Source: Babesia bovis T2Bo
Lineage: Eukaryota; Apicomplexa; Aconoidasida; Piroplasmida; Babesiidae
Direction: 5' to 3'
Assembly: GCF_000165395.2 (NCBI RefSeq)
Contig: NC_010575.1
Location: 667,001 to 731,000, forward strand
Length of the DNA stretch: 64,000 nucleotides
Shown here: positions 26,966 through 44,944 of the stretch, in pieces
Layout of the letters: every line of letters starts with the position of its first letter
Position numbering within the stretch: the first letter of the stretch is position 1
Position numbers and translations under genes: made by a program
Notes under the pieces: generated by a model
Database searches by the model: none
What the model saw: the letters and a program-made list of their open reading frames with translations, nothing else
Told to the model about the DNA's origin: nothing

Positions 26966-29900
26966 TCACCTAAAGAAATCTACAGATCCCAGTGGCGAAT
27001 AATCTAAGTCAGTGTCTTTTATGACTACCACCTTGCTAATTTTGAACCAAAGTCCCTGTCCGTCGAGCCAGTGGCATCCTGGTAGCATCAAGTGCGATCT
27101 GAAGTGAAGCCAATCTAGGGGTACTAGTACGGCCCAAAGAAGGTAAACCAAACAAAGGGCCCATGCCAAGGTGGACACCGTGAGAAAAGGCAATCGCAGC
27201 CAATATAAGAACGCGTTGATGCTTTTGAGGAGTGCGATGTAGTATGGACTTGATACTACACTTTCAAGCTGTGTAGCAAATTGATCACACTTCCGTAGGG
27301 TCTTAGTATTCTTATTCGCTGACTGAGTAGTATCTTCGACGGCTAACCCCGCTAGATTCAATGGGTTTTCATACGTAAAACCATATTTGAAAAGCACGGG
27401 TAAGACGCCGGCACAGCATACAATGCTCTCACATGTGCAATTACCCTTTGCATTGTCCAGCTTTGTGCCATGATTGCCTTCTTTGCATTCACCGCCGAAA
27501 CCACACTGACCTGATCCAGCACCTGAGTGACTCACACAGCCTGCTTTTGAGCAGTTGATGTTCTTGAATTCCGACTGTAACTGTTCCAAACCTTGATGGA
27601 ATCCCTCAGTTAAATACAGAATCCAAGATAGGTATACTGTGGAATATTTGATTGACAGAGTCTTGTAGATCGACCCACCCAAGGTGTCTAGATAAAGACC
27701 ACAAGAGGTGTGAGTCGCCGTTTCCTTACACGATACCATGGTATCTAAAAGACCTTTGCTGTGTTCAACGTTTTGTCCGGCGGACTTCGCATCATGCTGA
27801 CCTCCTTTCCATAGAGTTGCTGCCTTACCTATATCATAGGTGGTACCATCACCAGTAGTTGGCTTTACTAGGCACCATTCATTGATTTGTTTTTTGAACG
27901 ATTCTTCCAGTTCTTTCTTGCCCCCAGGAGCGCTGCTCCCAGCATATACGTCACCAAAACCACAAAAGTACCCCCAAAGTGTACCTATAACATGAGGACT
28001 GTTTCCAGTTAATGCAATAATGCACCTGACCAGATGATAAAGGCATGAGTCTTTAATCTTAGTATTTGAGTAGTGATACAAAATTGACGATATGCGATAA
28101 CCAACCCATGAATCAGCATCTACCTTATTTTTCTCATAAAATTTTCGGTAACCCATAGGTATCGGGCAATATTGGCCTTGAGTTCTATGGTCAATATGGG
28201 AAGCGATGGGTGGGTAATCAATTGTATCCGATTTCCCATTTGCCTTCACAAATTTATCATAGACATCATCACACGTAAACACTGGTAAGCAATCGCAAAG
28301 AAATGCTTGTAGAGGAGATGGAAATCCACCGGAAGTACGTTGTTTGCCACATTTTTCCATATGTTTTTTTCTATGCTCTGCAATTCTGCGACCTTCTATT
28401 TTCTCATTGTTTCCATATAAAAACAGATCATCGGCTACACAAATCCAGCTTCTAACTTCTGCATAATTCGCTTCATAACCAAATCTACAATCTCCCCAGC
28501 CATGGGCCCTCCACGGCAGACCTATGCAATGTTCTTTCAAAAAATACAACTGGTAAAACAGTGCCATGACGCAGTCGCTCAACAATGAATAGGCGGCGGT
28601 TGCCCTGCTAGGAAAGCCAAATTTGAAGCATTCATTAGCATAGAGATCGTGAATGGGAGTGGAAGCACTTGTCCCTTGTGGAGAAGCCGATCCTGTAGCA
28701 TCGCTAGAGAAGCTTCCCTCCAAAGACAGTATTACCATCGGAGTATATATACATCCGGCCATTAGATAGAATACTATAGATTCCTTGTCAATGGTGAAGC
28801 TATTGTCCCCATCCCCGATGAATTTCATTGAACTATCTTCACCACTGTTCCTCTTGATCATCTCCGTCATCTTTTGGATTAGCTCTTGGTATATAGGACT
28901 ATAGGGCAATGCACTTAACCAGTAGAGGATTTCACGGATAGTCCTGGGCTCTCTAGGTTCCTTCGGTGCGCTGGACGTTTGTTGAGTTTGTGTTGCTGCA
29001 TTTTCCTGTATGCTCCGTTGTACGCTCCGGAAATAACCAGTGGAGAGGATATGAAGAATGGTGAGGTGATGGTCGGTATTAAGATTCTGATCCTGGCCGT
29101 TATTAATAGTTGCAATTTCCGATCGACTTTTCTCATAGACTATTTGAAGGAATTCGCCATAGCTTGCACCGACCTTTGATTTGCAATCATCAAATATTGT
29201 AAGACACTTTACTACCACATCTGATCCCGATGTTTTTGTAAGTTGTTTTGTATCATAGCCGAGACACGTCATTACATATCCCAAAAACAGGAAACTGCTA
29301 CCATCAATAGTCATACCGTTCCACCTTTTACCATCTCCATGACATAACCAAAATAAATATGCGAGACCATTGAACAAAAGTGGTATGCAACCCATGAATA
29401 TCCTGGCACATTTTCCCCGATCTGTAACACCGTGACTTATTCTTGACATTACGTTGCTACGAACAAAGTATTACGTACTTTATTATAAATAATTCATACA
29501 TAACCTGCTGGCAGATATCTACCCTTAGTTTTGTCGGAAATTGTCCCCCTCTACACTAATGGACTTACCTGGAGTACCACCCTTCAACTTGGACCAGGTA
29601 CAGTTAGTATTGTTCTTGTTGTTATAGGCAGAACTATAACCAGTCTTTTCAGCCGATGAATTCTGTTGGCCTATACCAGATCCATCTACGCTTGTACCTC
29701 CATTTGTGTGGGCACTCTCATTCCAACCTATAAACTTAGCCAATCCTTTTCCCAATCCCTCTATCAGGTTTCTTACAGTCTTCGTCCCACGGATCCCTTG
29801 GACGGTAGAGAGTAAGCTGGCGATATTCAAATTGCCTCCAACCGCTAGGTCACCCAGATGACTCATGTCGACTCCGTCCAGAAGGTCACATACTGCGGCT

Positions 29901-30084
29901 GCAAGGCCGCAAATACAGTCTACGACAAAGTTACAAGGAAACAAGTAATTAACCTACCATCATCATTCAGCGATTTACCATCCTTACCAGTTACCCTCAG
30001 GACCCAGTCAATGGCCTCCTTAAGGTTTGCGGGGGAATCCGTCAAAGACAACTTCTGAGATGATGATGTGGCGTCACCAGCCAT
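26966..30084 (-). CDS. Variant erythrocyte surface antigen (VESA1 family), three exons, solitary
   Basis: Exons 30084-29958, 29919-29569 and 29421-26966 sum to 2,934 nt, 977 residues. Family marks are the N-terminal NLKEAIDWVLRVTGKDG, the EPRTIREILYWLSALPYSP block near residue 325, Cys-rich variable modules, CESIVCCAGVLPVLFKYGF, and one C-terminal membrane helix followed by VPLDWLHFRSH. VESA1 proteins are exported to the infected red-cell surface, where they vary antigenically and mediate adhesion to endothelium in B. bovis. There is no classical signal peptide, as usual in the family. It lacks the Cys/Lys-rich domain of the gene at 39287, so it is more VESA1b-like. Its introns (38 and 147 nt) carry none of the GC hairpins. 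An upstream in-frame ATG at 30120 is possible. Confidence 0.88.
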
Positions 30085-33860: not shown

Positions 33861-34843
33861 GGTTCCATTGGACATATAGGAGTCAACTTTCTAGTGAATA
33901 ACATATCGTAATGATTCATCACAAAGTAGCATACGTAGGCAATGGGTATACAACAAAATATATCATCGTTGGTGGCATTTCAATCATTTGTAGAGATCTA
34001 CTGAGATTGGGACAATCACAGCACCTACAGAAGTAGGACTGAACGCAAGGTACCGTTATATGTCGCCCTTGAAAAACTCACTATTATACCGCACTTTGGA
34101 AAACGTGAGAGGATAGATATTGAGTGTTAAAGTAAATCTTGACATAAAAACTAATATTCGCTATACATGACACCATTTAATGTACAGGTGGTATAAATGT
34201 ATAACAATGCTGTATAGCGAGGTAGATCATTAGTGCAGTAGTGAGAGTGTATCTAACGGTATAACCAAGAGTCTAGGTTAGAGATTCACGTTAACATCTT
34301 CTTCGGGTGAGGTCTAATTAACGACCACAAGATGATAAATCACTCAGTCGACAGTGGCCCTATATTGGAGTGTGTTCATTGTCAATATTGACTAACCATA
34401 TGGAAGATAGCGGTTAATGTATAGTACCTCCTTGGCACTCTTCCAGTAGTGTTGGTGATTTCTTTAGAATTAATTCCTACATTCCATTTAATCATTACAG
34501 GCACTCTTTTATAGCTGAGTGTTGCAATTTGTTATAATAGGGTCTATGGGTTGTCATTCCATCTGCAGATATGATAACCAGGATAACGATGACTGCTAGG
34601 TCATGAAGGGTGCTATTGAATCACTCTCCTAGTGATTAACTCCCCTAGACACCATCTCCACTGTACTTATCCCTGAGATGTATCACGGATCAACTACAGC
34701 ATCGATATTCATTAAACCTATTCACAACCCTGATACTAACTAACGCATTACAGTGACGTAGCTCTAACAAAACATTGACCCTGTCTGATCCCCTTCGAGT
34801 AGTGTGTAATACTACGGAGTACTGTTAGAGTACCCCCTGTCAA
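33861..34843. other. Gene-poor AT-rich stretch, no gene seen
   Basis: Nearly 1 kb between the stop codons of the PCID2 gene and the convergent 11-exon VESA gene. I find no frame, repeat or RNA I can support. Confidence 0.5.
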
Positions 34844-37800
34844 TTACTTCCCACCAAAAAACTCCAATATCCCCCTTCCCTTCTTCTTTCCCACCATCAG
34901 TACCTCCCATGGGCTCAGACTGCCCTTCCTGAACCATCCCCTACAATGCGACCTCATATGTGTCCAGTCCAGTGGCCATATGGCACCAAAGGCAAGGTAC
35001 AGTACCGCTACTAGCCACGCCAAGGTCAGTACAAAGATCCAGGGGAGCCTGGTGGTGTAGATGAGCTGGTTTATTTCGTGGTGGAGGCCTTTTTTGGCGC
35101 TGTCCAATTGCTCACCGCCTAGGACTCCCTTCAAGGTCTCCAGGAAATCGTGACACTTCTTAGGTTCACCACCTACTACAGTATTACCCCTAGTGCACTG
35201 TTGCGCCCAAGGCGCCCTTATAGAACTTTTACCAAAAGTGGTACTACACTTTCGCTAGCACTGTCTTTACAGTGTTACTAGAACTTACCTCCAGCGTCGT
35301 GCAACTCCGTTACATTACCATACCCAAAGCCATACTTGTACAACACCGGCAGTACCCCGGTACATGATACGACAGAGGTACACTGACAGACTCCGCCACC
35401 ACCACCACCACTGCATGGCATACCGTGACTTCCTGCTTTACACGACTCTCCACATCCAACAGCTCCTGCCTTACCTACTACATCATTAATCCATATGATA
35501 CGGTTGCGCGCCGTACTAAAGGATATTGTTGCGCCGAAGGCGCCCCTATCTCTACGGCGCGCCACTATAAGCACTAGAACTCACCTCTACCACACCCATC
35601 ACCTCTACAATCCACCTTCTTGAACTCCTCTTTCAACCCCTCTAGTCCTTTCTCAAACTTTTCAATCAAATAGACCAACCATGACAGGTAGGTCCCGGCC
35701 ATCAAGGGACTCAACTGGCCATACTGCTGGCCACTCAGAGGAGAGAGGTATGGACTGCCGGTAGAGCACCCTGAGAGACAACTGAGAGTGCCATTAGTAC
35801 CGTTCGACTCAGCGGTAGTACCACTGAACTTATCCAGTGCCGTGACCAGGGTTTCACCCTTCTTTACCATTCCGAGACCAACATTTTCTACCTCATCCCT
35901 TAGTTTACTCCATACACTTTTTGCTGTGAAATTCCATGACTGGCGTGCCCCAATGTAGACTATATAGTAATAGAACCCAAAGAGGTCACCCAGAGTCCGT
36001 GGCACCGTGGGAGTGATACATGCCAGTAGTCTCAGTAGTACCACTAGGGTGCCATGGCACTTCTCTGGGTCACAGTAGTACTCCAGGAGATGTGATATTG
36101 TATTCCCAGTGCAGTGGGCAGGGTACTTCTGCTGCTGGCCTGCTACAGGATTAGTCCATGTAATATACTGTGGGACGTACCTGGTGGCTTCGTTGTCAGT
36201 TCTGCCTGCTTATGGGTACCCTGGGTTAAATCTGTGCATACCATGAGTCACTGTTAGTCACTATTGGTTACTGTGGCGCCCAGGGGGTGCCCCTAGGGTA
36301 TATATACAGTGCCCTAGGGGTGCCATATAGAGTACAGGGACGTACCTTTGAAGTGATTGTCTTTGTCCCATCCCATAGGGACGGGACATAACTCTGGATA
36401 CTCTTTGTGTGGCCCTTTAACTTCACCGCTAGGAGTGACAATCTTGTTCATGTGCTCTTCTATATCCGGATAACTTTGTTTACGGCTGTTGAGATCTACT
36501 CCTATGGTTTGATTGCAGGCCATTGTTCCTATTGCGTCACACAAGAAGCCCTGTAACGCTGACACGCTAGTACTACCCGCACCACTCTGTAATCCACAAT
36601 TCTTCGTGTGGTCTCCAGCACCACTACTACCTGCTACACCATGAATCCATATGACACTGTTGCGCGCCGTACTAACGGGCACTGTCAAGTACCATCAATG
36701 TGGCGCGCATAAAGTTATATTACTAACCTTTTGTTTCGCATATCCATATTTTAGCACCCGAACCACTCACTCCACTACCATACCTACAACTATTCCAGCC
36801 CAGCACACTTCCATTCTCCACTCCCACCATGCATTGCTTCCTCAGGAAATAGAGCTGGTAGAAGCAGTGGTAGACATATACCCTCAGTTGGTCCAGGCAC
36901 TGGGCGGGACTAATGTCCATCTGGAAGCCAAAGAGCCCATTGGCGTACATCCCATGTAGGGGGCCTACACATAGTGTTAGTGACTAGTGCTGCTAGGGTA
37001 CTTACCAAACTTGGAGACTTCCAGGTGGTACCCCCTGTAGCAGACTTGGCCTTCCTTGAGTTTTCCGGGGGAACCTGCTGGTGCCGGTGCGGCTGCTGGA
37101 GCTGTCGCTGCCTGTGTCTTGTCTTTATCCTCGAGTTTACACCTCTTAGAACTAGGGTCTTCCTTATGCTTGGGACACCTCTTGTCATCAGTAGTAGTAC
37201 TACTACTGCTACCACTTCCTCCTCCTCCACCACCACCTACTACACCATTACTCCACATGACTACCCCTAGGGCACTGTTGCGCCGAAGGCGCCCTTATAT
37301 ATAGCACTAGAGTAATGTACTCACCTCCCGGCGTCTTATCTACCTCCTTTTCTATGGTCCCCTGGATACCGATGAGTACCAGTGGGCAGTAGCCACAGGC
37401 GGCCATTAGGTAGTGGGTTACACAGTCTTTCTTGAGGTCTGTCTTGTCACCATCATCTTGTCCATGGATCTCTATTTTATCCACTGTTTCCTGTGGATTA
37501 GTCTCTTTTCTGGGATACTTATCATGCATCCTATCCACCAGTGCCCTGTACCCCTGACTATAGGGCAATGCACTTAGCCAGTAGAGGATCTCCCGGATGG
37601 TCCTGGGTTTCCTAGGAGCACTAGGGGCTGGCTTCGCCGGGGTAGTCACTCCCTTCGCCCCGGCACTGCCTGCCCTGAAGTACCCACTGGCCAGGATGTG
37701 GAGTACCAATAGGGGGTACTGCTCACATAATTTCTCACTAGTACCCTTGCCAGCTTCCTTTGCCTTATCATAGATACTACTGTAGTACTCAGCTACACTA

Positions 37801-38879
37801 TCTGGGTCACATTGGTACTACAGAGGATGTGGACTTACCCTTAGTAGCAACACCGTTCTTGAATTCGTTCCATTTCATATCTTTATTTGTCAACAATTCG
37901 TTTATAAATGTTCCCTTCTTCCCGGTACCTACTCCACCATGACTCCACATGGCTACCCTAGGCAGTACTTACCTCCCTGATTCAACCTCTCCAGGTCATA
38001 GCCCATGGCCGCCATGAATGAGCCGAGACCAGCCTTGGTAAGATCACTACTGATATCGTGCAGCTTACTATCGCTCCACCTATCCTTGCCACTCCCATCC
38101 TTGGTCAACCATCCCAACTGACTGAGTCCACTCCAGATGAGACATACTGACCCTAGGAAAATACGGGCCAGGAGGTGGACCTTAGAGGGGTCATTAGTCG
38201 TAGTAGTTGTACTACCTGCTATAGCATGAGTCACTGTCAGTACTAATGGGTACTTACCTGGTGTACCATTGACTATGTCAGTCCATAGAGCTTCCGTCTT
38301 GTTATATGCTGATTTATAGCAGCATTGTTTCGGATTAGTGGCACATTGGCAAGTACCACTACCACTAGTACCGGGACTACAACACTGAGCACCACCACCA
38401 CCAGTACCAGGACATTCACACACCTTTCCTATTCCTTTATCCCCCTTAAGACAACACTCATCTTCCTTATCATTCCACCCAACCCACTTCTGCAGTCCCA
38501 GTGCCAACTGCTCTATCAGTGTCTTTATAACCTCGGTGCCACCGGCGCAGGTATCCCTGGCAGCACTAGTGCTGCCACCAAGGAGTCCCAGGTCCGTGAG
38601 CACTGGTTGTGCTATGGTAAGTTCCTCCTTTAGGAGTATGTCGTCCCAGTACCTCTGTTGGCTGGGACCAGGGGACCCCGGGGACCTGGCGTCATACAGT
38701 AGGTCCTTCACTGCCTTGGCCAAGAAGCAGAGGCAACCGAATTGGGGAGGTGTTGCCGGCTTCGCCGGCGCATTCTTCTTACCATCCCTACCAGTTACCC
38801 TCAGGACCCAGTCAATGGCCTCCTTCAGGTTGGTGGGAGCCTGGGTGAGGCTGGTGTAAGGGGTCCACTTCTGTGCCAT
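34844..38879 (-). CDS. Variant erythrocyte surface antigen (VESA1 family), complete, 11 exons
   Basis: Exons: 38879-38258, 38215-37973, 37928-37839, 37801-37325, 37236-37006, 36964-36728, 36630-36346, 36231-36181, 36139-35585, 35474-35289 and 35172-34844. They sum to 3,306 nt, exactly 1,101 residues plus stop, so the gene is intact. In order: APTNLKEAIDWVLRVTGRDG; a Cys-rich insert (CECPGTGG then CCSPGTSGSGTCQC); HLLARIFLGSVCLIWSGL; KPRTIREILYWLSALPYSQG; CTSVVSCTGVLPVLYKYGF; and the last-exon membrane helix LPWIFVLTLAWLVAVLYLAF with PLDWTHMRSH. All ten introns are phase 1. The gene is divergent from the VESA gene at 39287, the head-to-head layout of the B. bovis ves expression site. Five introns carry GC hairpins. 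Confidence 0.92.
35203..35215. repeat. ves intron hairpin (GCGCC-CAA-GGCGC)
   Basis: A perfect 5-bp stem with a three-base loop in the last intron (116 nt) of the 11-exon VESA gene. It is one member of the 13-bp hairpin family in the island. Confidence 0.85.
35506..35562. repeat. Nested inverted repeat in ves intron
   Basis: Outer arms GCGCGCCGTA (35506-35515) and TACGGCGCGC (35553-35562) enclose the inner 13-bp hairpin GCGCC-GAA-GGCGC (35531-35543). The whole element lies inside a 110-nt intron and could form a cruciform in DNA or a long stem in RNA. Confidence 0.85.
36663..36710. repeat. GCGCGCC / GGCGCGC inverted repeat in ves intron
   Basis: Arms GCGCGCC near 36663-36670 and GGCGCGC near 36701-36708 lie in the 97-nt intron. 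The flank around the first arm (tccatatgaNac then gcgcgccgtactaa) nearly repeats the one in the intron at 35475-35584, which suggests the introns are homogenised by recombination. Confidence 0.75.
37280..37292. repeat. ves intron hairpin (GCGCC-GAA-GGCGC)
   Basis: A perfect 5-bp stem with a GAA loop in the 88-nt intron, flanked by cactgtt on one side and cctta on the other, the same flanks as other copies. Confidence 0.85.
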
Positions 38880-38968
38880 TATGTTACCACCCCTTGTTTC
38901 GAGAGTGTCCAGTAGCACGAGTGGTCAGTGGTAGTGGCTATAGGGGTGGAATCCTATATAATACAGTG

Positions 38969-38981
38969 GCGCCTTCGGCGC
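38969..38981. repeat. Spacer hairpin, left arm copy (GCGCC-TTC-GGCGC)
   Basis: A perfect 5-bp stem followed by gacagt. It pairs as an inverted copy with 39170-39182 in the divergent VESA spacer. Confidence 0.85.
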
Positions 38982-39169
38982 GACAGTGTCCTAGGGGATT
39001 CCACTGTAACAACGGCGTCGCCACCATGGTAATACCTTAGGATTCTCTATTTAGTAGCACCTCTTACTCAATAGCAATACCACCTCTGAGTATACTACCC
39101 TAGTAGATTCCCATAGGTAGTGGTGGAATCCCACAGAACAGTATGCGCGCCACTGTAACGGTTACTGTC

Positions 39170-39182
39170 GCGCCGAAGGCGC
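39170..39182. repeat. Spacer hairpin, right arm copy (GCGCC-GAA-GGCGC)
   Basis: Reverse complement of the left copy, preceded by actgtc. Beyond it lies a further cgggcgcgc block that the left arm lacks, so the two arms are similar but not identical. Confidence 0.85.
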
Positions 39183-39286
39183 CCCTTCTACACGGGCGCG
39201 CTCAGTATATATAGCATTCCACCCCGATAGCCACTCCACTCCCTCACCACTGTGAGTACTCTTGAGTACTCCTAAAGGCACTGATA

Positions 39287-42200
39287 ATGGCCGTGAATAG
39301 CACTTTCACGCCGAAGGCGTCACTAACAGAAGCACCCACCAACCTGAAGGAGGCCATTGACTGGGTCCTGAGGGTTACTGGTAGGGATGGTAAAGAGAAC
39401 AAAGATGGTACGTTACCATAGACATATGGATATAAGGGCGCCTTCGGCGCTCCGTACTATATAGACTCACTATTTTACAGAATGTATATGTGGCCTGGCG
39501 GCGGCAGTGGCTGACCTATTGCAGTCAGTAGAACTGGAGTACCATGGTAAGTACTGAGTAGTATAGTAGTTCAGCACCATTATAGGCTATCAAGGTGATA
39601 CCAAGGAAGCGGATACTACCGGGAAAAACAATCTGGCCACCGAAAAGCAAGTCACAGACCGCCTCAATGGACTATTCTCCCTGGTACAGGGTCTGGGTGG
39701 CACTGCAGTGGTCCGGACCTATATAGACCAGTTGGCACAGATACTCAGTGCACTCGTTGGGTGGAGTAAGATAGAGACGTGTAAGGGCAGTGGGTGCAAA
39801 AGCACGGATGGTAGTAGGAATTGCAAGTATGGTGGCAAAGGTCACGGTGGATCACAGTGCTGCTGCAGCTCAGGTGGCGCTGCACAACACAAGGGCAGTC
39901 CCTGGTGTTGCAAGGAAAATGGTGGCAGGAGGACTATGAACTGCGCCAATGGTTGTTGCAGTCATGGTGGCCCGAGCTGCAAGTATCTAGATGATGTAAA
40001 TGATAATGACAACTGTGACAAGTGTGAATGTAAGATATTCGACGACAACGGCCACCACCTGGGCAGAGGGTGTACAAGGTGTAAGGGTAGTGGTGGTAGT
40101 GATTGTAGCTGTGAAAGCGATTGTACTACTTCTGGTAAGTGCAAATGCGCTGGAAAAGGCAAATGCTGCAAGTGTTATTGCACGAGTTGTTCGAAGTGTA
40201 AGATGGATGCGAAGTGCGTTTGCACCACCGAGGAGAGCATTATACTATCCAGATCAACATACGTAGAGGTCAGCATAGAGCGCTATATGTCATCATACTC
40301 AAAAAACAAACACAATCATCCAACATGGAATGATCTGAAGGAAAGTGCTTCTAATCGCCACCACTGTGCCCAAATCCTCCTGGGATCAGTATGTCTCATC
40401 TGGAGTGGCATTACTTATATGTATTGGACTGGAAAGTGGGCCACGGGTAGTCCATACTGGAATAATCACATCCTGGATGGCAGTGGCCTAGATGATGGTA
40501 CACTATCCCAATGGTTACAGGCCCTAGGGTTTCCTAGGGATATGTTGAATAACGGTGGTCCTGGAAATAGAATGGATGGACTGATTAACGATGAGTTAAA
40601 GGAGAGGTTGTTTCTAGGGTTTATTCACCCTGATGACGAAGCTGCGAAGGAAACTTGGGGTAATACAGCTAGAGTGCCAACAAGTATGAACTGTGCAGGA
40701 TTTGTACACACTATACATAGGGATTCATTTCATCAGGGAGCTACTGTGTTCAGGAATGGCACTACCTCTGGTAATACTGACCAGGATATTAACCAGCACA
40801 AACGAGGTGCTCTCTTCAAACTCTATATCCTATCATGTGCCTATTTTACAGGGTTACAGAAAAAGACTACTGAGAGTAATAGTCTACGTCACCCGAAGAC
40901 CATCCGGGAAATCTTATACTGGCTTAGTGCATTGCCATATAGTACGGCATACCCCAAAATACTGCAGCACGGCAAAGAGAGACTAGAAGAGGTACTCAAG
41001 AAACCCGGGGATAGTGACTCTACCAATGGAGAGACACAACTTAAGTTTCACCAAACAGGCCGCGATTATCCCATTACAGTAGATGAATACAACCTCTTTG
41101 CCCACTTCCAAGCAGTGACTCAGTACTGCCCACTGGTCCTCATAGGTATCCAAGGTGGACTCAAAGGCACTGACGAAACACTAGGACCTCCCATCCACTC
41201 CCTCTACGCCAACACGGAGTGCCACTTCACCTACCCAGCAGTGCCCATTCAAGCATACAACCAGGTGGTCCACTACATTAGGGCTCTGTTCTACCAGCTC
41301 TACTTCCTAAGGAAGCAATGTGCCGTGAAGGTTACTTGTGGAGGCAAATGGCGTGAATGTAGGTATGGAAATGGGGTAGTCTCCAAGGGGGTAATTAGCT
41401 GGATGTGCCTGGGGTGTAGCCCCATGGAACATGATAGGAAAAAGAGGGTGGGGAAGGTAAAGGGGGAGTTGAGAAAAGTAGTGCCCCAGGGGACATCAGA
41501 GGAGCTCGTGAAGGCCCTAAAGGAATTACTTTTGAAGATTGGTGATGTAGTGGTACAATTGGGTAATGCCCAGGAGAGGTTGGATAGGGGAGAGATTGTT
41601 CTGACGGGAGTGAAGAATGCACTAAATAAAGTATTTGCAGGGGTGTATCCGAATGGGAAGTATGGGAAGAATTTTAAGGATGTACTATATGAGGTACTAG
41701 AGAAATTGGAGGAGGAGAAGGTGAAGGGACTAGAGAACCTGAAAGGAATCAAGCATGATGGGGAGACATCACAGGCAATAAGTCAGGCCAGGAAGGCACT
41801 AGAGGCGGCTAAAAAGAACGCTGGAAAAGGTGCTGGTTATATTGATCCATGTAAGAATGCGGTGAGTGCTGCTATCCATGGGTTTCATCAGGTATTGGAG
41901 ATATTTAAGAAGTGGTTCACAGATACATCAAAAGGGCTCGACGGTCACAAAGAGGGACTGTTAAAAGCTACAGAGCAACTCATCTCCATCTGCACCTCTC
42001 CCAAATGCAGCGCATGTGCAAAGCACATCGACAAGTGTGGCCGACAGGGAGAAAAAAAGACCTGTGAGAAGTGCCTCCAACCCACTACCACTGGTGTCCC
42101 CTCCCCCCTCCAGGCATTTCTCGATGACAGGTTACCAGGTTTTAGTTGTAGAGAGGTGGTGAACGATGAGAGCGCACAGCCAGACTACCCCTTGGCTTCA

Positions 42201-43451
42201 TCCCACTTAGGACACTGTAATGGTTCCGGTCAGTGCTGCCCACTGCCAATGGGTTTTAGAAATCAATTCTATAGTGGCACCAGTGACAGTACCGGCCAAC
42301 GCCTCTATGGCATCCTGTACTTCTTCAGTAACGAGAACATGATGCAGTCTTGTGTTTATACACTAGTGAGGGTCACAGCAGCACTCAGTGCCACCACACC
42401 ACAGGTATTGGGTGACGTCTTTGGGTTCTTTAGGGGTGGTGTAGGAAACAAGGAGGAGGGAGAGAAGAAGGGACAGAACAAGAAATGTGATCACGTTAGT
42501 AATCCAAGTGACCAATCAAAGAGGGAAGAATACTTTTGCGGCTGGTGTGCCTCTGGGTTACGGGATGTAGTACAAAAGATAGAGTGGATACCCAATGGGA
42601 ACAGTACTCCAGGAGGGCACTACATGGACAAAGTCGGTAAAGCGCTAAGAGATATTAAGGGGGACAAAGGGGATAGTGCTGCTGAACAAAACAGTACTAC
42701 TTCCCTCTCAACGCTCACTGACGGCAACCACTACGTATCCCCCCTAACCGGTGAGCTGTACACCGCAGTGAGTGCCACTTTCGGTAACACATACCTCTCA
42801 TGGGTACTATACCTATCAGATGCACTTGAAGGTGGATTAAAGTCACTCTCTGAGGCATTCCGTAATATTGAATGCCGGGGCTGTAAGGGTCAGTGTGACC
42901 CCAATAAGTGCAAGAAGGGTGAACACGGTAAAACTACTGGGGACTCCAAGAGCACTCCACTATGTAACTGCCAATCAATCGTATCATGTACCGGGGTACT
43001 GCCGGTATTGTATAGACATGGCTTCAGCTACGGTAACCCATTCAATCTGGAGGGGTATGAACAGAAAGAGGAGGAGGATTTGCAGTTCGACATTGAGGAC
43101 ACGAAGAAAGCTAAGCAGTGTCATGAGTTCCTAGATAGCCTGAAGAAGGTAATAGAGAACGCTGAGAAAGACAAGCAGGACCAGGCCACTAAAGAACACC
43201 CCCTCACCAACCTCCTCACCCAGGTCGGCCAACTCCAATACGACATACGGCTCCCCTGGATCTTTGTGCTGACCTTAGCCTGGCTAGTGGCAGTGCTATA
43301 CCTTGCCTTTGGAGCCATATGGCCACTGGACTGGACACATATGAGGTCACACTGGTTACGGGGTGGAGAACACCAGTGGCAGTGTATGTGGTATAAGGTG
43401 ATGACGGGACGGAAGGGAGTGGAGCTGATGGAGTATTTTGGTAAGACATAG
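39287..43451 (+). CDS. Variant erythrocyte surface antigen (VESA1a-like), with Cys/Lys-rich domain, three exons
   Basis: Exons 39287-39407, 39481-39546 and 39586-43451 sum to 4,053 nt, 1,350 residues, intact. After APTNLKEAIDWVLRVTGRDG and a short helix-rich part, residues about 125-285 hold roughly 30 cysteines with many Lys and Gly (KCKCAGKGKCCKCYC), like the CKRD of B. bovis VESA1a. Next come LLGSVCLIWSGITYMYW, HPKTIREILYWLSALPYST, and a helical insert of about 250 residues (EELVKALKELLLKIGDVVVQ) with no counterpart in the neighbour. The end has CQSIVSCTGVLPVLYRHGF and the membrane helix LPWIFVLTLAWLVAVLYLAF. The first intron (73 nt) carries the GC hairpin; the second (39 nt) does not. The last exon covers what takes nine exons in the divergent partner. 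Confidence 0.93.
39308..39320. repeat. Hairpin variant inside coding sequence (ACGCC-GAA-GGCGT)
   Basis: A perfect 5-bp stem with the same loop as the non-coding copies, lying 21 nt after the start codon of the VESA gene and encoding TPKAS. Confidence 0.8.
39438..39450. repeat. ves intron hairpin (GCGCC-TTC-GGCGC)
   Basis: A copy in the first intron (39408-39480) of the plus-strand VESA gene, preceded by tataagg like the copies in the neighbour's introns when read in their transcription sense. Confidence 0.85.
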
Positions 43452-44128
43452 TGGCGCCTTCGGCGCAACGGTGCTAAATGATATACACTAGTGTCACACA
43501 CAATATATAGTAGCGCTATAGGTAGTGATCTTATAGTGGGCATTAACAGGGTACACATTCCAGTGAAACCAGTCCTTTGAACAGGGATATATATGGAAGG
43601 CTGGAGTTAGTTCACTGAGCAGGTAGTGGGCGCCCTTCCATGGTACCACACACATTCAAATTTGCCCAGTGGGTTCCATAGGATGGCAGTGACTTTACTA
43701 GGGTACATGCCATTTATGACGTACATACAGTACACTGTCAATGCCATTGGGGGTCATATTATGGCGCCAGGGGCGCAACGGTGTCTCTAGGGGTGGTGAT
43801 GCGGAGCAATTGTAACATAGAAAGCCCATGGGTTCCACCCAGCCTTTGGCAACAATTGAAGGGAACAGTACATTGTAGACATGTATAGCAATTATTAATT
43901 TTCATTTGGCATACAAGTTATAGGTCTCCAGGGCGGTGTAACGCAAATGTTGTTATACCGTTGGTATAGCTTTAGTCAGGTAGTTTATACGTTTTAGTTG
44001 TGATTCCACTGAAACTGTGGCTTAGCTTTGGGTAATTCTTTCATAAAAGTTTTCTAGAGCTTTTGTGGTACTTTTGCTGAAAGTTTAGTATAAAAGTAGT
44101 CCTTTTCGGGGTGGTCATAGTGTCGTAG
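43452..44128. other. Spacer between VESA gene and orphan VESA exon, with GC hairpins
   Basis: The 13-bp hairpin recurs at 43454-43466, two bases after the VESA stop codon, with the aacggtg flank; a degraded copy (ggcgcc then ggggcgcaacggtg) lies near 43764-43782. The rest is AT-rich with no frame. The last part (about 44050-44128) reads like the end of a ves intron, finishing in a TAG acceptor. Confidence 0.65.
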
Positions 44129-44481
44129 GTCAGAAGAAGTGCCACGATTTCTTGGGAACACTGACCAACGTAGAAAAAAGCACCGAGTTCAAGAATCTCA
44201 CCACCTCCATCAACCAACTCATCTACACCACTAGGCTCCCGTGGATCTTTGTTCTCACGGTAGCCTGGCTAGTGGCGGTACTCTACCTTGCCTTTGGTGC
44301 CATATGGCCACTGGACTGGACACATATGAGGTCGCATTGGTTACGGGGTGGAGAACACCGGTGGCAATGTATGTGGTATAAGGTAATGACTGGACGCAAA
44401 GGAATGGAACTGATGGAGTATTTCGGTGGGAAGTCATTAACAGGAGGTACCATACAATATAATATAGACTTTGGAGAGTGA
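44129..44481 (+). pseudogene. Orphan VESA 3' exon (gene fragment)
   Basis: A lone copy of the VESA last exon. It follows a GTGTCGTAG acceptor-like end and reads QKKCHDFLGTLTNVEKS, then INQLIYTTRLPWIFVLTVAW and PLDWTHMRSHWLRGG, ending after MEYFGGK with an 18-residue extension not seen in the intact genes. The frame has no internal stop. There is no upstream VESA exon in the 650 bp before it, and no start codon in a fitting place, so it cannot be a complete antigen gene. Such partial ves copies can act as donors for segmental gene conversion, the known mode of ves variation in B. bovis. That use here is inference. Transcription of the fragment cannot be judged. Confidence 0.85.
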
Positions 44482-44944
44482 TATCTTGTGTCGACCTTGA
44501 AATATATATTAGAGTGCCATGAATAGTATCAGTGGTCCCTGGAAATATATCATAGAATCACCATTGGAGTGCTGTAGGGCAAATACACAGCACCGATAAG
44601 GCGGTTGTCTATTTGGTGAGCCTATACGCTATCATATAAGATTCCTATGATATTGCTCTATACACCGTAGAATAATAACTGATATCGCTAATCTTTCTAT
44701 AGATTTTATGTTTGATTGGTGTAGATGTTGTAGTAATGTAGTTAGGGTGTAGAGAAGGTGTTATCCATTGGCAGTATTAACTTTGTTGAGCCAATAAAGC
44801 AACCGAATGCGAACTTCAGAATAGAAGATTTTTGTAAATAGTGTAATGTAGTTTGAGGGGATGAGCCAATGTCTATGGTGTGTGTCGCCGGGGTACACAA
44901 CTCACTGCGAAATCTTCCTGTTTAATTACACAATTTATAAAATA
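44482..44944. other. Intergenic stretch at the island edge, no gene seen
   Basis: AT-rich sequence between the orphan VESA exon and the kinase gene, expected to hold the kinase promoter. No ves-type hairpin is present beyond this point. Confidence 0.5.

What the first reader, a model, noticed from the sequence alone, without database searches (positions are those of the whole stretch)
35173..39480. GC hairpins occur only in the long ves introns
In the 11-exon gene the introns split into two size groups. Five are 37-44 nt and have no hairpin. Five are 88-116 nt and each contains a GC inverted repeat (perfect 13-bp hairpins at 35203, 35531 and 37280, a GCGCGCC/GGCGCGC pair near 36663-36708, and a ggcgccc/ggggtgcccc block near 36270-36330). 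The partner gene shows the same rule: its 73-nt intron has the hairpin (39438-39450) and its 39-nt intron does not. The added length thus looks like a hairpin-bearing insertion of about 45-75 nt into minimal introns. This could be a mobile or conversion-spread element, a splicing regulator or a recombination tag.
Basis: seen in the sequence. Interest (0 to 1): 0.85.

Follow-up and report, generated by a model that had tools for sequence, protein, structure and literature searches.

The report
Palindromic modules shared across ves loci
The variant-antigen genes of a cattle blood parasite carry a short mirror-image DNA module in their shared promoters, in many of their longer introns and just after many of their stop codons; its core hardly changes while its surroundings drift, which suggests it does a job there.

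Summary
In 129 modelled ves introns from 20 genes, a GC stem of 5 bp or more occurs in 0 of 49 short (<=50 nt) and 47 of 80 longer introns (shuffles: mean 6.7, maximum 10). The same intron position occurs with and without the insert (37 against 94 nt), so 'optional hairpin-bearing insert' is well supported.

The word 'only' is wrong. Of 120 exact 13-mers in 314 kb, 33 lie in modelled introns, 46 just after stop codons, 17 in promoters. Of 268 places I could list of 309 in the genome, 267 lie in ves loci. Two modules exist: S (GGCGCC-NNN-GGCGC) and L (GCGCGCC...GGCGCGC), with S often nested in L.

The S stem does not vary among aligned non-decayed copies, while flanks and usually the loop do. 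I read S/L as a ves-specific cis-element copied among ves non-coding sites, whose gain and loss sets intron length. Its function is inferred, not shown. RNA-compaction and conversion-border roles found no support.

The parts
34844..38879 (-). ves1beta-type gene, 11 exons (ATG at 38879, stop ending at 34844)
   Evidence: gene model
39287..43451 (+). ves1alpha-type gene, 3 exons, TAG stop at 43449-43451
   Evidence: (VESA1_N, E 1.2e-103, on part of exon 3)
37240..37324 (-). beta intron 4 (85 nt; 88 with the alternative acceptor), module S
36634..36727 (-). beta intron 6 (94 nt), module L without S; paralog L033 has 37 nt and no module here
36232..36345 (-). beta intron 7 (114 nt), GC palindrome block, imperfect in most paralogs; paralog L030 has 47 nt
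35478..35584 (-). beta intron 9 (107 nt), module L with S nested inside
35176..35288 (-). beta intron 10 (113 nt), module S; S present in 11 of 11 beta genes at this position
39408..39480 (+). alpha intron 1 (73 nt), module S; paralogs carry S, L or L+S here
35203..35215 (-). S core in beta intron 10, sense loop TTG
35531..35543 (-). S core in beta intron 9, sense loop TTC
37280..37292 (-). S core in beta intron 4, sense loop TTC
38969..38981 (+). S core in the shared promoter, beta side, between GGTGGAAT (38945) and GATTCCAC (38997)
39145..39201 (-). module L with S (39170-39182) in the shared promoter, alpha side, between GGTGGAAT (39122) and ATTCCACC (39216)
39438..39450 (+). S core in alpha intron 1, sense loop TTC
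35506..35562 (-). module L, 57 nt, in beta intron 9
36662..36708 (-). module L, 47 nt, in beta intron 6
43454..43466 (+). S core 2 nt after the alpha stop codon
43764..43776 (+). S core with AGG loop between the alpha stop codon and a second terminal-exon-like ORF (44089-44481)

Best explanation
The hairpins are copies of two ves-specific palindromic DNA modules. S is GGCGCC-NNN-GGCGC. L is GCGCGCC...GGCGCGC around 31-45 nt and may hold S inside. Shown here: they sit in the shared promoters, in introns and directly after stop codons of ves genes; they are present or absent at the same intron position in different paralogs, which accounts for much of the intron length difference; and the S stem is invariant among the non-decayed copies aligned, while the flanks and, at most sites, the loop are not.

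Inferred: the modules spread and are lost by ectopic (segmental) conversion within the ves family, and the core is kept because something recognises it. I think a DNA-binding protein (a dyad or direct-repeat site) or the extruded DNA hairpin is more likely than an RNA structure. The most likely role is as a common cis-element of ves loci that links promoter, gene body and gene end for silencing or monoparalogous expression, or holds loci together for conversion.
For: ves restriction: 268 of 309 places could be listed; 267 lie in ves loci, 260 within 8 kb of a VESA C-terminal exon and 7 more by homology. Same-site presence/absence. Same L module with different flanks in alpha intron 1, beta introns 6, 8b, 9 and promoters. 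Sense-only sharing between intron positions, 35 of 105 pairs, 0 reversed.

Constraint: pairwise difference per site in the stem 0.000 at intron 9 (9 genes), intron 10 (11 genes) and 46 stop-codon copies; 12-nt flanks 0.11-0.40. At 3' ends 46 have 0 stem mismatches, 14 have 4 or more, 1 could not be scored, none lie between. Outside coding matches, 120 perfect copies stand against 2 with one stem mismatch and 0 with a compensated pair. Spacing of the half-sites below 10 nt: 120 copies at 3, 1 at 6, 0 at the others; 44 pairs at 10-20 nt. G lies 5' of the 13-mer in 120 of 120 on at least one strand. Each of 11 beta genes has S within 450 nt upstream of its start and in intron 10.
Against: No function was tested. 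The gene models are mine, without transcripts. Paralogs are not independent, so invariance could partly reflect recent homogenisation, and decayed copies (more than 3 stem mismatches) were left out of the per-site figures. Conversion as the mode of spread is inferred; the only direct test of tract borders was negative and small. In introns, 3' sites and terminal-exon copies the sense loop is never GAA (0 of 83), which a symmetric DNA site does not predict unless by shared descent. At intron 4, 2 of 11 genes lack the hairpin; at introns 6 and 8 no gene examined has an intact S, so it is not needed at every site. Only 3 of 9 alpha introns 1 carry S; the others carry L alone.
Confidence: 0.5

Rival explanations
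1. Selfish or neutral palindromic repeats, a nuclear counterpart of yeast mitochondrial GC clusters, that spread by conversion or invasion and are tolerated in ves non-coding DNA.
For: Palindromic, GC-rich, patchy at the same sites, merged and nested modules, stem less variable than loop, as described for GC42 in PMC4478555 (section 'GC42 is under functional constraint' read). Introns 6 and 8 show what look like decayed copies.
Against: At 3' ends, where the right flank differs by 0.405 per site, there are 46 perfect and no slightly decayed copies; near-restriction to one gene family and set positions such as 2 or 13 nt after the stop. No target-site duplication was noticed, though this was not tested systematically.
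Confidence: 0.25
2. RNA element: the hairpin acts in pre-mRNA (splicing) or in the 3' UTR (3' end formation or stability).
For: Sense loop never GAA (0 of 83 intron, 3' and terminal-exon-copy sites); fixed place right after the stop codon.
Against: 41 distinct introns with hairpins do not fold to a shorter exterior length than shuffles (17.7 against 15.4, p=0.41), mean z -1.1. The S hairpin is in the minimum-energy fold of 12 of 32 distinct S-bearing introns. The same module also lies in promoters. No Rfam match in 34500-44600.
Confidence: 0.15
3. Recombination hotspot or tag: the hairpin starts or bounds segmental gene conversion.
For: Nearly confined to a family that varies by segmental gene conversion (PMC7485966, passages); flanks duplicated terminal exons.
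Against: 0 of 14 near-identity tract ends in beta genes lie within 20 nt of an arm (4% expected, so the test is weak). PMC7485966 (passages) reports short homology patches at breakpoints, and it is not among the papers holding 'hairpin'.
Confidence: 0.1

Closest known systems
Quasi-palindromic bidirectional ves promoters (mentioned in PMC7485966, passages; original paper PMC3294438 not held)
   Same: Same loci; the promoter copies of S and L would be part of what is called quasi-palindromic
   Different: Here the same modules are also in introns and after stop codons, with nested forms and an invariant core; I found no mention of that in the passages I could read
Plasmodium falciparum var pairing elements (PMC8957917, passage)
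   Same: A sequence element shared by upstream region and intron of each variant-antigen gene
   Different: Sequences were not compared here; extra copies at gene ends; no functional data here
Yeast mitochondrial GC clusters, GC42 (PMC4478555, outline with abstract and one section)
   Same: Short GC palindromes, stem constrained against loop, patchy presence, mergers
   Different: Nuclear-sized contigs, nearly confined to one gene family, one orientation within genes
Introners (PMC9860276, passages)
   Same: Introns at different positions share sequence; intron presence varies between paralogs
   Different: Similarity seldom reaches both splice sites; mostly module plus 3' tail

Membership tests
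Yeast-type GC clusters | GC-rich palindrome | tested here: met
Yeast-type GC clusters | stem less variable than loop | tested here: met
   stem 0.037, loop 0.322 pooled over introns 4, 9, 10 (at intron 9 alone both are 0.000)
Yeast-type GC clusters | sporadic presence at the same site, with mergers | tested here: met
Yeast-type GC clusters | mitochondrial location | tested here: not met
   listed copies lie on C1-C5; C1-C4 are 1.2-2.6 Mb; the length of C5 was not shown
Introners | similarity extends near both splice sites | tested here: not met
   of the best matches per position pair, only the short i1/i2 pair clearly does (37 of 39 nt); the others share module and/or 3' tail
var-type pairing elements | same element in upstream region and intron of each gene | tested here: met
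   11 of 11 beta genes: S upstream and in intron 10; 9 of 9 alpha introns 1 carry S, L or both. Sequence identity with the var element was not tested.
var-type pairing elements | shared binding protein and role in silencing | not testable with these tools
   needs wet work
MITE-like transposons | terminal inverted repeats | tested here: met
   module L
MITE-like transposons | target-site duplication | tested here: inconclusive
   none obvious by eye in the flanks; no systematic test
Known RNA family | Rfam match | tested here: not met
   window 34500-44600, no match up to E=1

The most novel reading that the evidence does not exclude
S/L is a constrained cis-element that couples the promoter, introns and ends of ves genes, an independently evolved counterpart of var pairing elements, and its copying also gained and reshaped ves1beta introns. 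Intron 8b, present in 2 of 11 genes, resembles intron 9 over 103 nt (77%, E 1.4e-19). That would offer an alternative to the published idea that ves1alpha lost introns by reverse transcription.
Probability: 0.22. Interest if true: 0.85.

Novelty: new variant of a known kind. Interest (0 to 1): 0.6.

Why it matters
How one ves locus is chosen, and how ves segments find each other for conversion, is as far as I know open. A conserved motif upstream of and inside all 11 beta genes examined, and after 46 of 61 terminal-exon ends, gives a concrete cis-element to test. The module series at one splice site also makes intron length and intron gain within a single gene family traceable.

Tried and rejected
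RNA compaction of long introns: not supported (longer introns without the hairpin even have a longer exterior length than shuffles, p=0.017). Conversion borders at hairpins: no support, but only 14 ends. Compensatory stem changes: 28 compensated double variants against 6 single-mismatch ones, but all 28 lie in coding matches, with 4 of the 6, so they are not covariation of the non-coding modules. General excess of 3-nt-loop palindromes: about 3-fold over shuffles in ves coding DNA, but non-ves DNA is similar, so not used. Known RNA family: none. A paper search for GGCGCC with ApiAP2 gave 0 papers. Introner membership in the strict sense: rejected.

Rows dropped or altered before counts: the ves-like model at about window 26.9-30.1 kb; 3 models without a terminal exon and 5; spurious intron calls (extra introns at positions 4, 8b and 9, and one 30-nt call). 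Acceptors of introns 2, 4, 6, 8 and 9 were set by a shared tail motif, those of introns 7, 8b and alpha by other short motifs; two were patched by hand and intron 10 was re-set by a second rule. A first script for this failed. With a length penalty alone the model in some cases chose shorter introns, ending before or within the module, so acceptor choice is a judgement. The 314 kb of the counts leave out L034 (8 kb).
Full report
What the window holds. A divergent pair of variant-antigen genes lies at 34844-43451: an 11-exon gene on the minus strand and a 3-exon gene on the plus strand, with about 400 bp between the start codons. Part of the large exon of the plus gene matches Pfam VESA1_N at E 1.2e-103; two stretches of the minus gene matched no Pfam family.

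The observation. Introns of the minus gene are 39, 44, 37, 85 (or 88), 41, 94, 114, 38, 107 and 113 nt; those of the plus gene are 73 and 39 nt. The short ones have no GC hairpin; the long ones have one or part of one. The exact 13-mer GCGCCNNNGGCGC occurs 8 times in the window against 0.00 expected and 309 times in the genome, against 0 for the pattern read backwards.

Family-wide test. I fetched 250 kb of further ves-rich DNA and modelled 11 beta-type genes (window included) and 9 alpha-type genes, giving 129 introns. A perfect stem with at least 5 GC pairs occurs in 0 of 49 introns of 50 nt or less and in 47 of 80 longer ones; shuffled long introns give a mean of 6.7 and a maximum of 10 of 80 (Fisher p 1e-13, not corrected for relatedness or length). 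Against the rule: 33 longer introns lack such a stem. Several hold half or decayed modules (introns 6, 8, 9) or an A/T-rich palindrome (alpha intron 2, 8-10 bp), and some hold nothing notable. The introns are my models without transcripts, and acceptor choice matters (see Tried and rejected).

An optional insert. At the same splice position paralogs differ. Intron 6 has 37 nt without a module in one gene and 94 nt with module L in two others. Intron 7 has 47 against 102-142 nt. Intron 8 has 38 against 58-60 nt, the longer form with what looks like a decayed S. Alpha intron 1 carries S (2 genes), L (6) or L with nested S (1). Intron 9 carries S, L, L+S or a half. Some whole introns are optional as well: the extra intron in exon 1 in 6 of 11 beta genes, intron 8b in 2 of 11, and in locus L030 the reading frame runs unbroken where intron 2 lies in the other 10.

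Borders and sharing. Module L runs from GCGCGCC to GGCGCGC, in 34 cases with 31-45 nt between (5 further pairs at 11 nt), and keeps much of its inside while its flanks differ between alpha intron 1, beta introns 6, 8b and 9, and promoters. Introns at different positions share sequence: 35 of 105 position pairs match at E<=1e-3 (best 3.7e-21), with 0 pairs for reversed queries and no antisense match at E<1e-6. A 44-nt intron 2 and an 88-nt intron 4 share their last 34 nt at 97%, as expected if they differ by a hairpin insert.

Not only introns. Of 120 exact 13-mers in 314 kb, 46 lie 3' of terminal-exon stop codons, 33 in modelled introns, 17 in promoters, 4 just 5' of terminal-exon copies, and 20 elsewhere, of which three (C1d 30700, 38481, 77682) appear from neighbouring exon matches to lie in alpha introns that I did not model. 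Of 61 terminal-exon ends, 46 have the 13-mer within 57 nt: 14 at 2 nt, 31 at 13 nt and 1 at 41 nt after the stop; 15 do not, the window's beta gene among them. The promoter copies in the window lie between GGTGGAAT and ATTCCAC repeats. The published description 'quasi-palindromic, bidirectional promoter regions' (PMC7485966, passages) would cover those copies.

Restriction to ves loci. I could list 268 of the 309 genome places. 260 lie within 8 kb of a VESA C-terminal exon (exons). Seven more lie in loci with ves homology. One, at C2:518514, is 25 kb from the nearest listed exon, has another loop and was not examined; 41 places were not listed. The first 100 places, all on C1, leave gaps of 498, 114 and 113 kb without a copy.

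Constraint. In introns 9 and 10 the ten stem bases do not differ between genes that have S (9 and 11 genes). At intron 4, 9 of 11 are perfect and 2 lack the hairpin. Loops differ by 0.58, 0.00 and 0.28 per site at introns 4, 9 and 10, and 12-nt flanks by 0.11-0.40. At 3' ends 46 copies are perfect, 14 have 4 or more mismatches and 1 could not be scored; loop 0.067 and right flank 0.405. Outside coding matches, 120 perfect copies face 2 single-mismatch and 0 compensated ones; introns 6 and 8 hold copies decayed beyond this count. Spacing below 10 nt is 3 in 120 pairs and 6 in one. A G precedes the 13-mer on at least one strand in 120 of 120, and 270 of 309 genome copies fit GGCGCCNNNGGCGC followed by a non-C. 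The motif can therefore also be read as a direct repeat GGCGC-N4-GGCGC, and the hairpin reading is not unique. Sense loops in introns, 3' sites and terminal-exon copies are never GAA (0 of 83); promoters are mixed.

Mechanism. RNA folding gives no sign that the hairpin shortens the intron, and S forms in the minimum-energy fold of 12 of 32 distinct S-bearing introns. Near-identity tract ends show no excess at hairpins, but only 14 ends were available. As single-stranded DNA the S hairpin folds at about -6 kcal/mol on either strand, and the whole window intron 9 has z -3.6. I conclude that a sequence-specific, ves-wide cis-element is the best reading, with ectopic conversion as the likely mode of spread. 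The pairing-element idea rests on the analogy that each beta gene examined has S both upstream and in an intron, as var genes have pairing elements upstream and in the intron (PMC8957917, passage). The constrained-stem, variable-loop pattern and the merging of modules resemble yeast GC42 (PMC4478555, outline with abstract and one section), whose authors infer functional constraint on a mobile element.

Literature. Passages of PMC4066756 found by term search, plus part 1 of its section 22, mention up to 11 ves1beta introns of varying length and the reverse-transcription idea for ves1alpha; the search for palindrom, hairpin and inverted repeat gave 0 occurrences there. Passages of PMC6684078, PMC12064010 and PMC3459096 showed nothing on hairpins in ves introns. 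In the listings of my searches I saw no paper on hairpins in ves introns; the key original papers (PMC3294438, PMC2034396, PMC3563878) are not held, so prior mention cannot be excluded.

Noticed in passing
L031 (C1:914001-924000) and other C1 loci: Tandem copies of ves terminal exons follow many of the ves genes read; several neighbouring ends in L031 are 705 bp apart. Five terminal-exon ends without the hairpin (C1d 3295, 44308, 68802, 84035; L031 9416) share GTAAATAAATAC shortly after the stop, like a polyadenylation signal; four of them are the last copy of an array as far as it was read.
   Followed up: partly
L030 5607-9588, C1d-22781 and C1d-40083 beta genes: Whole-intron presence/absence among paralogs within one genome: intron 2 missing in L030, intron 8b present in 2 of 11, an exon-1 intron in 6 of 11.
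   Followed up: partly
window 39308-39320 and alpha exon 1 of paralogs: A coding palindrome ACGCC-GAA-GGCGT lies in alpha exon 1 and recurs in several other ves loci.
   Followed up: no
C1 alpha genes, intron 2: 72-73 nt against 39 nt in the window; the longer form has an A/T-rich inverted repeat of 8-10 bp (10 bp with loop CC in one gene).
   Followed up: partly
G000:C2:518514: A 13-mer hairpin with loop GTA (TAC on the other strand) not near a listed ves exon.
   Followed up: no
window about 26966-30084, minus strand: A further ves-like gene with short introns (38, 50 and 37 or 43 nt in my models) whose end is not among the 150 C-terminal matches; possibly a divergent type such as the ves1gamma named in PMC4066756.
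   Followed up: no
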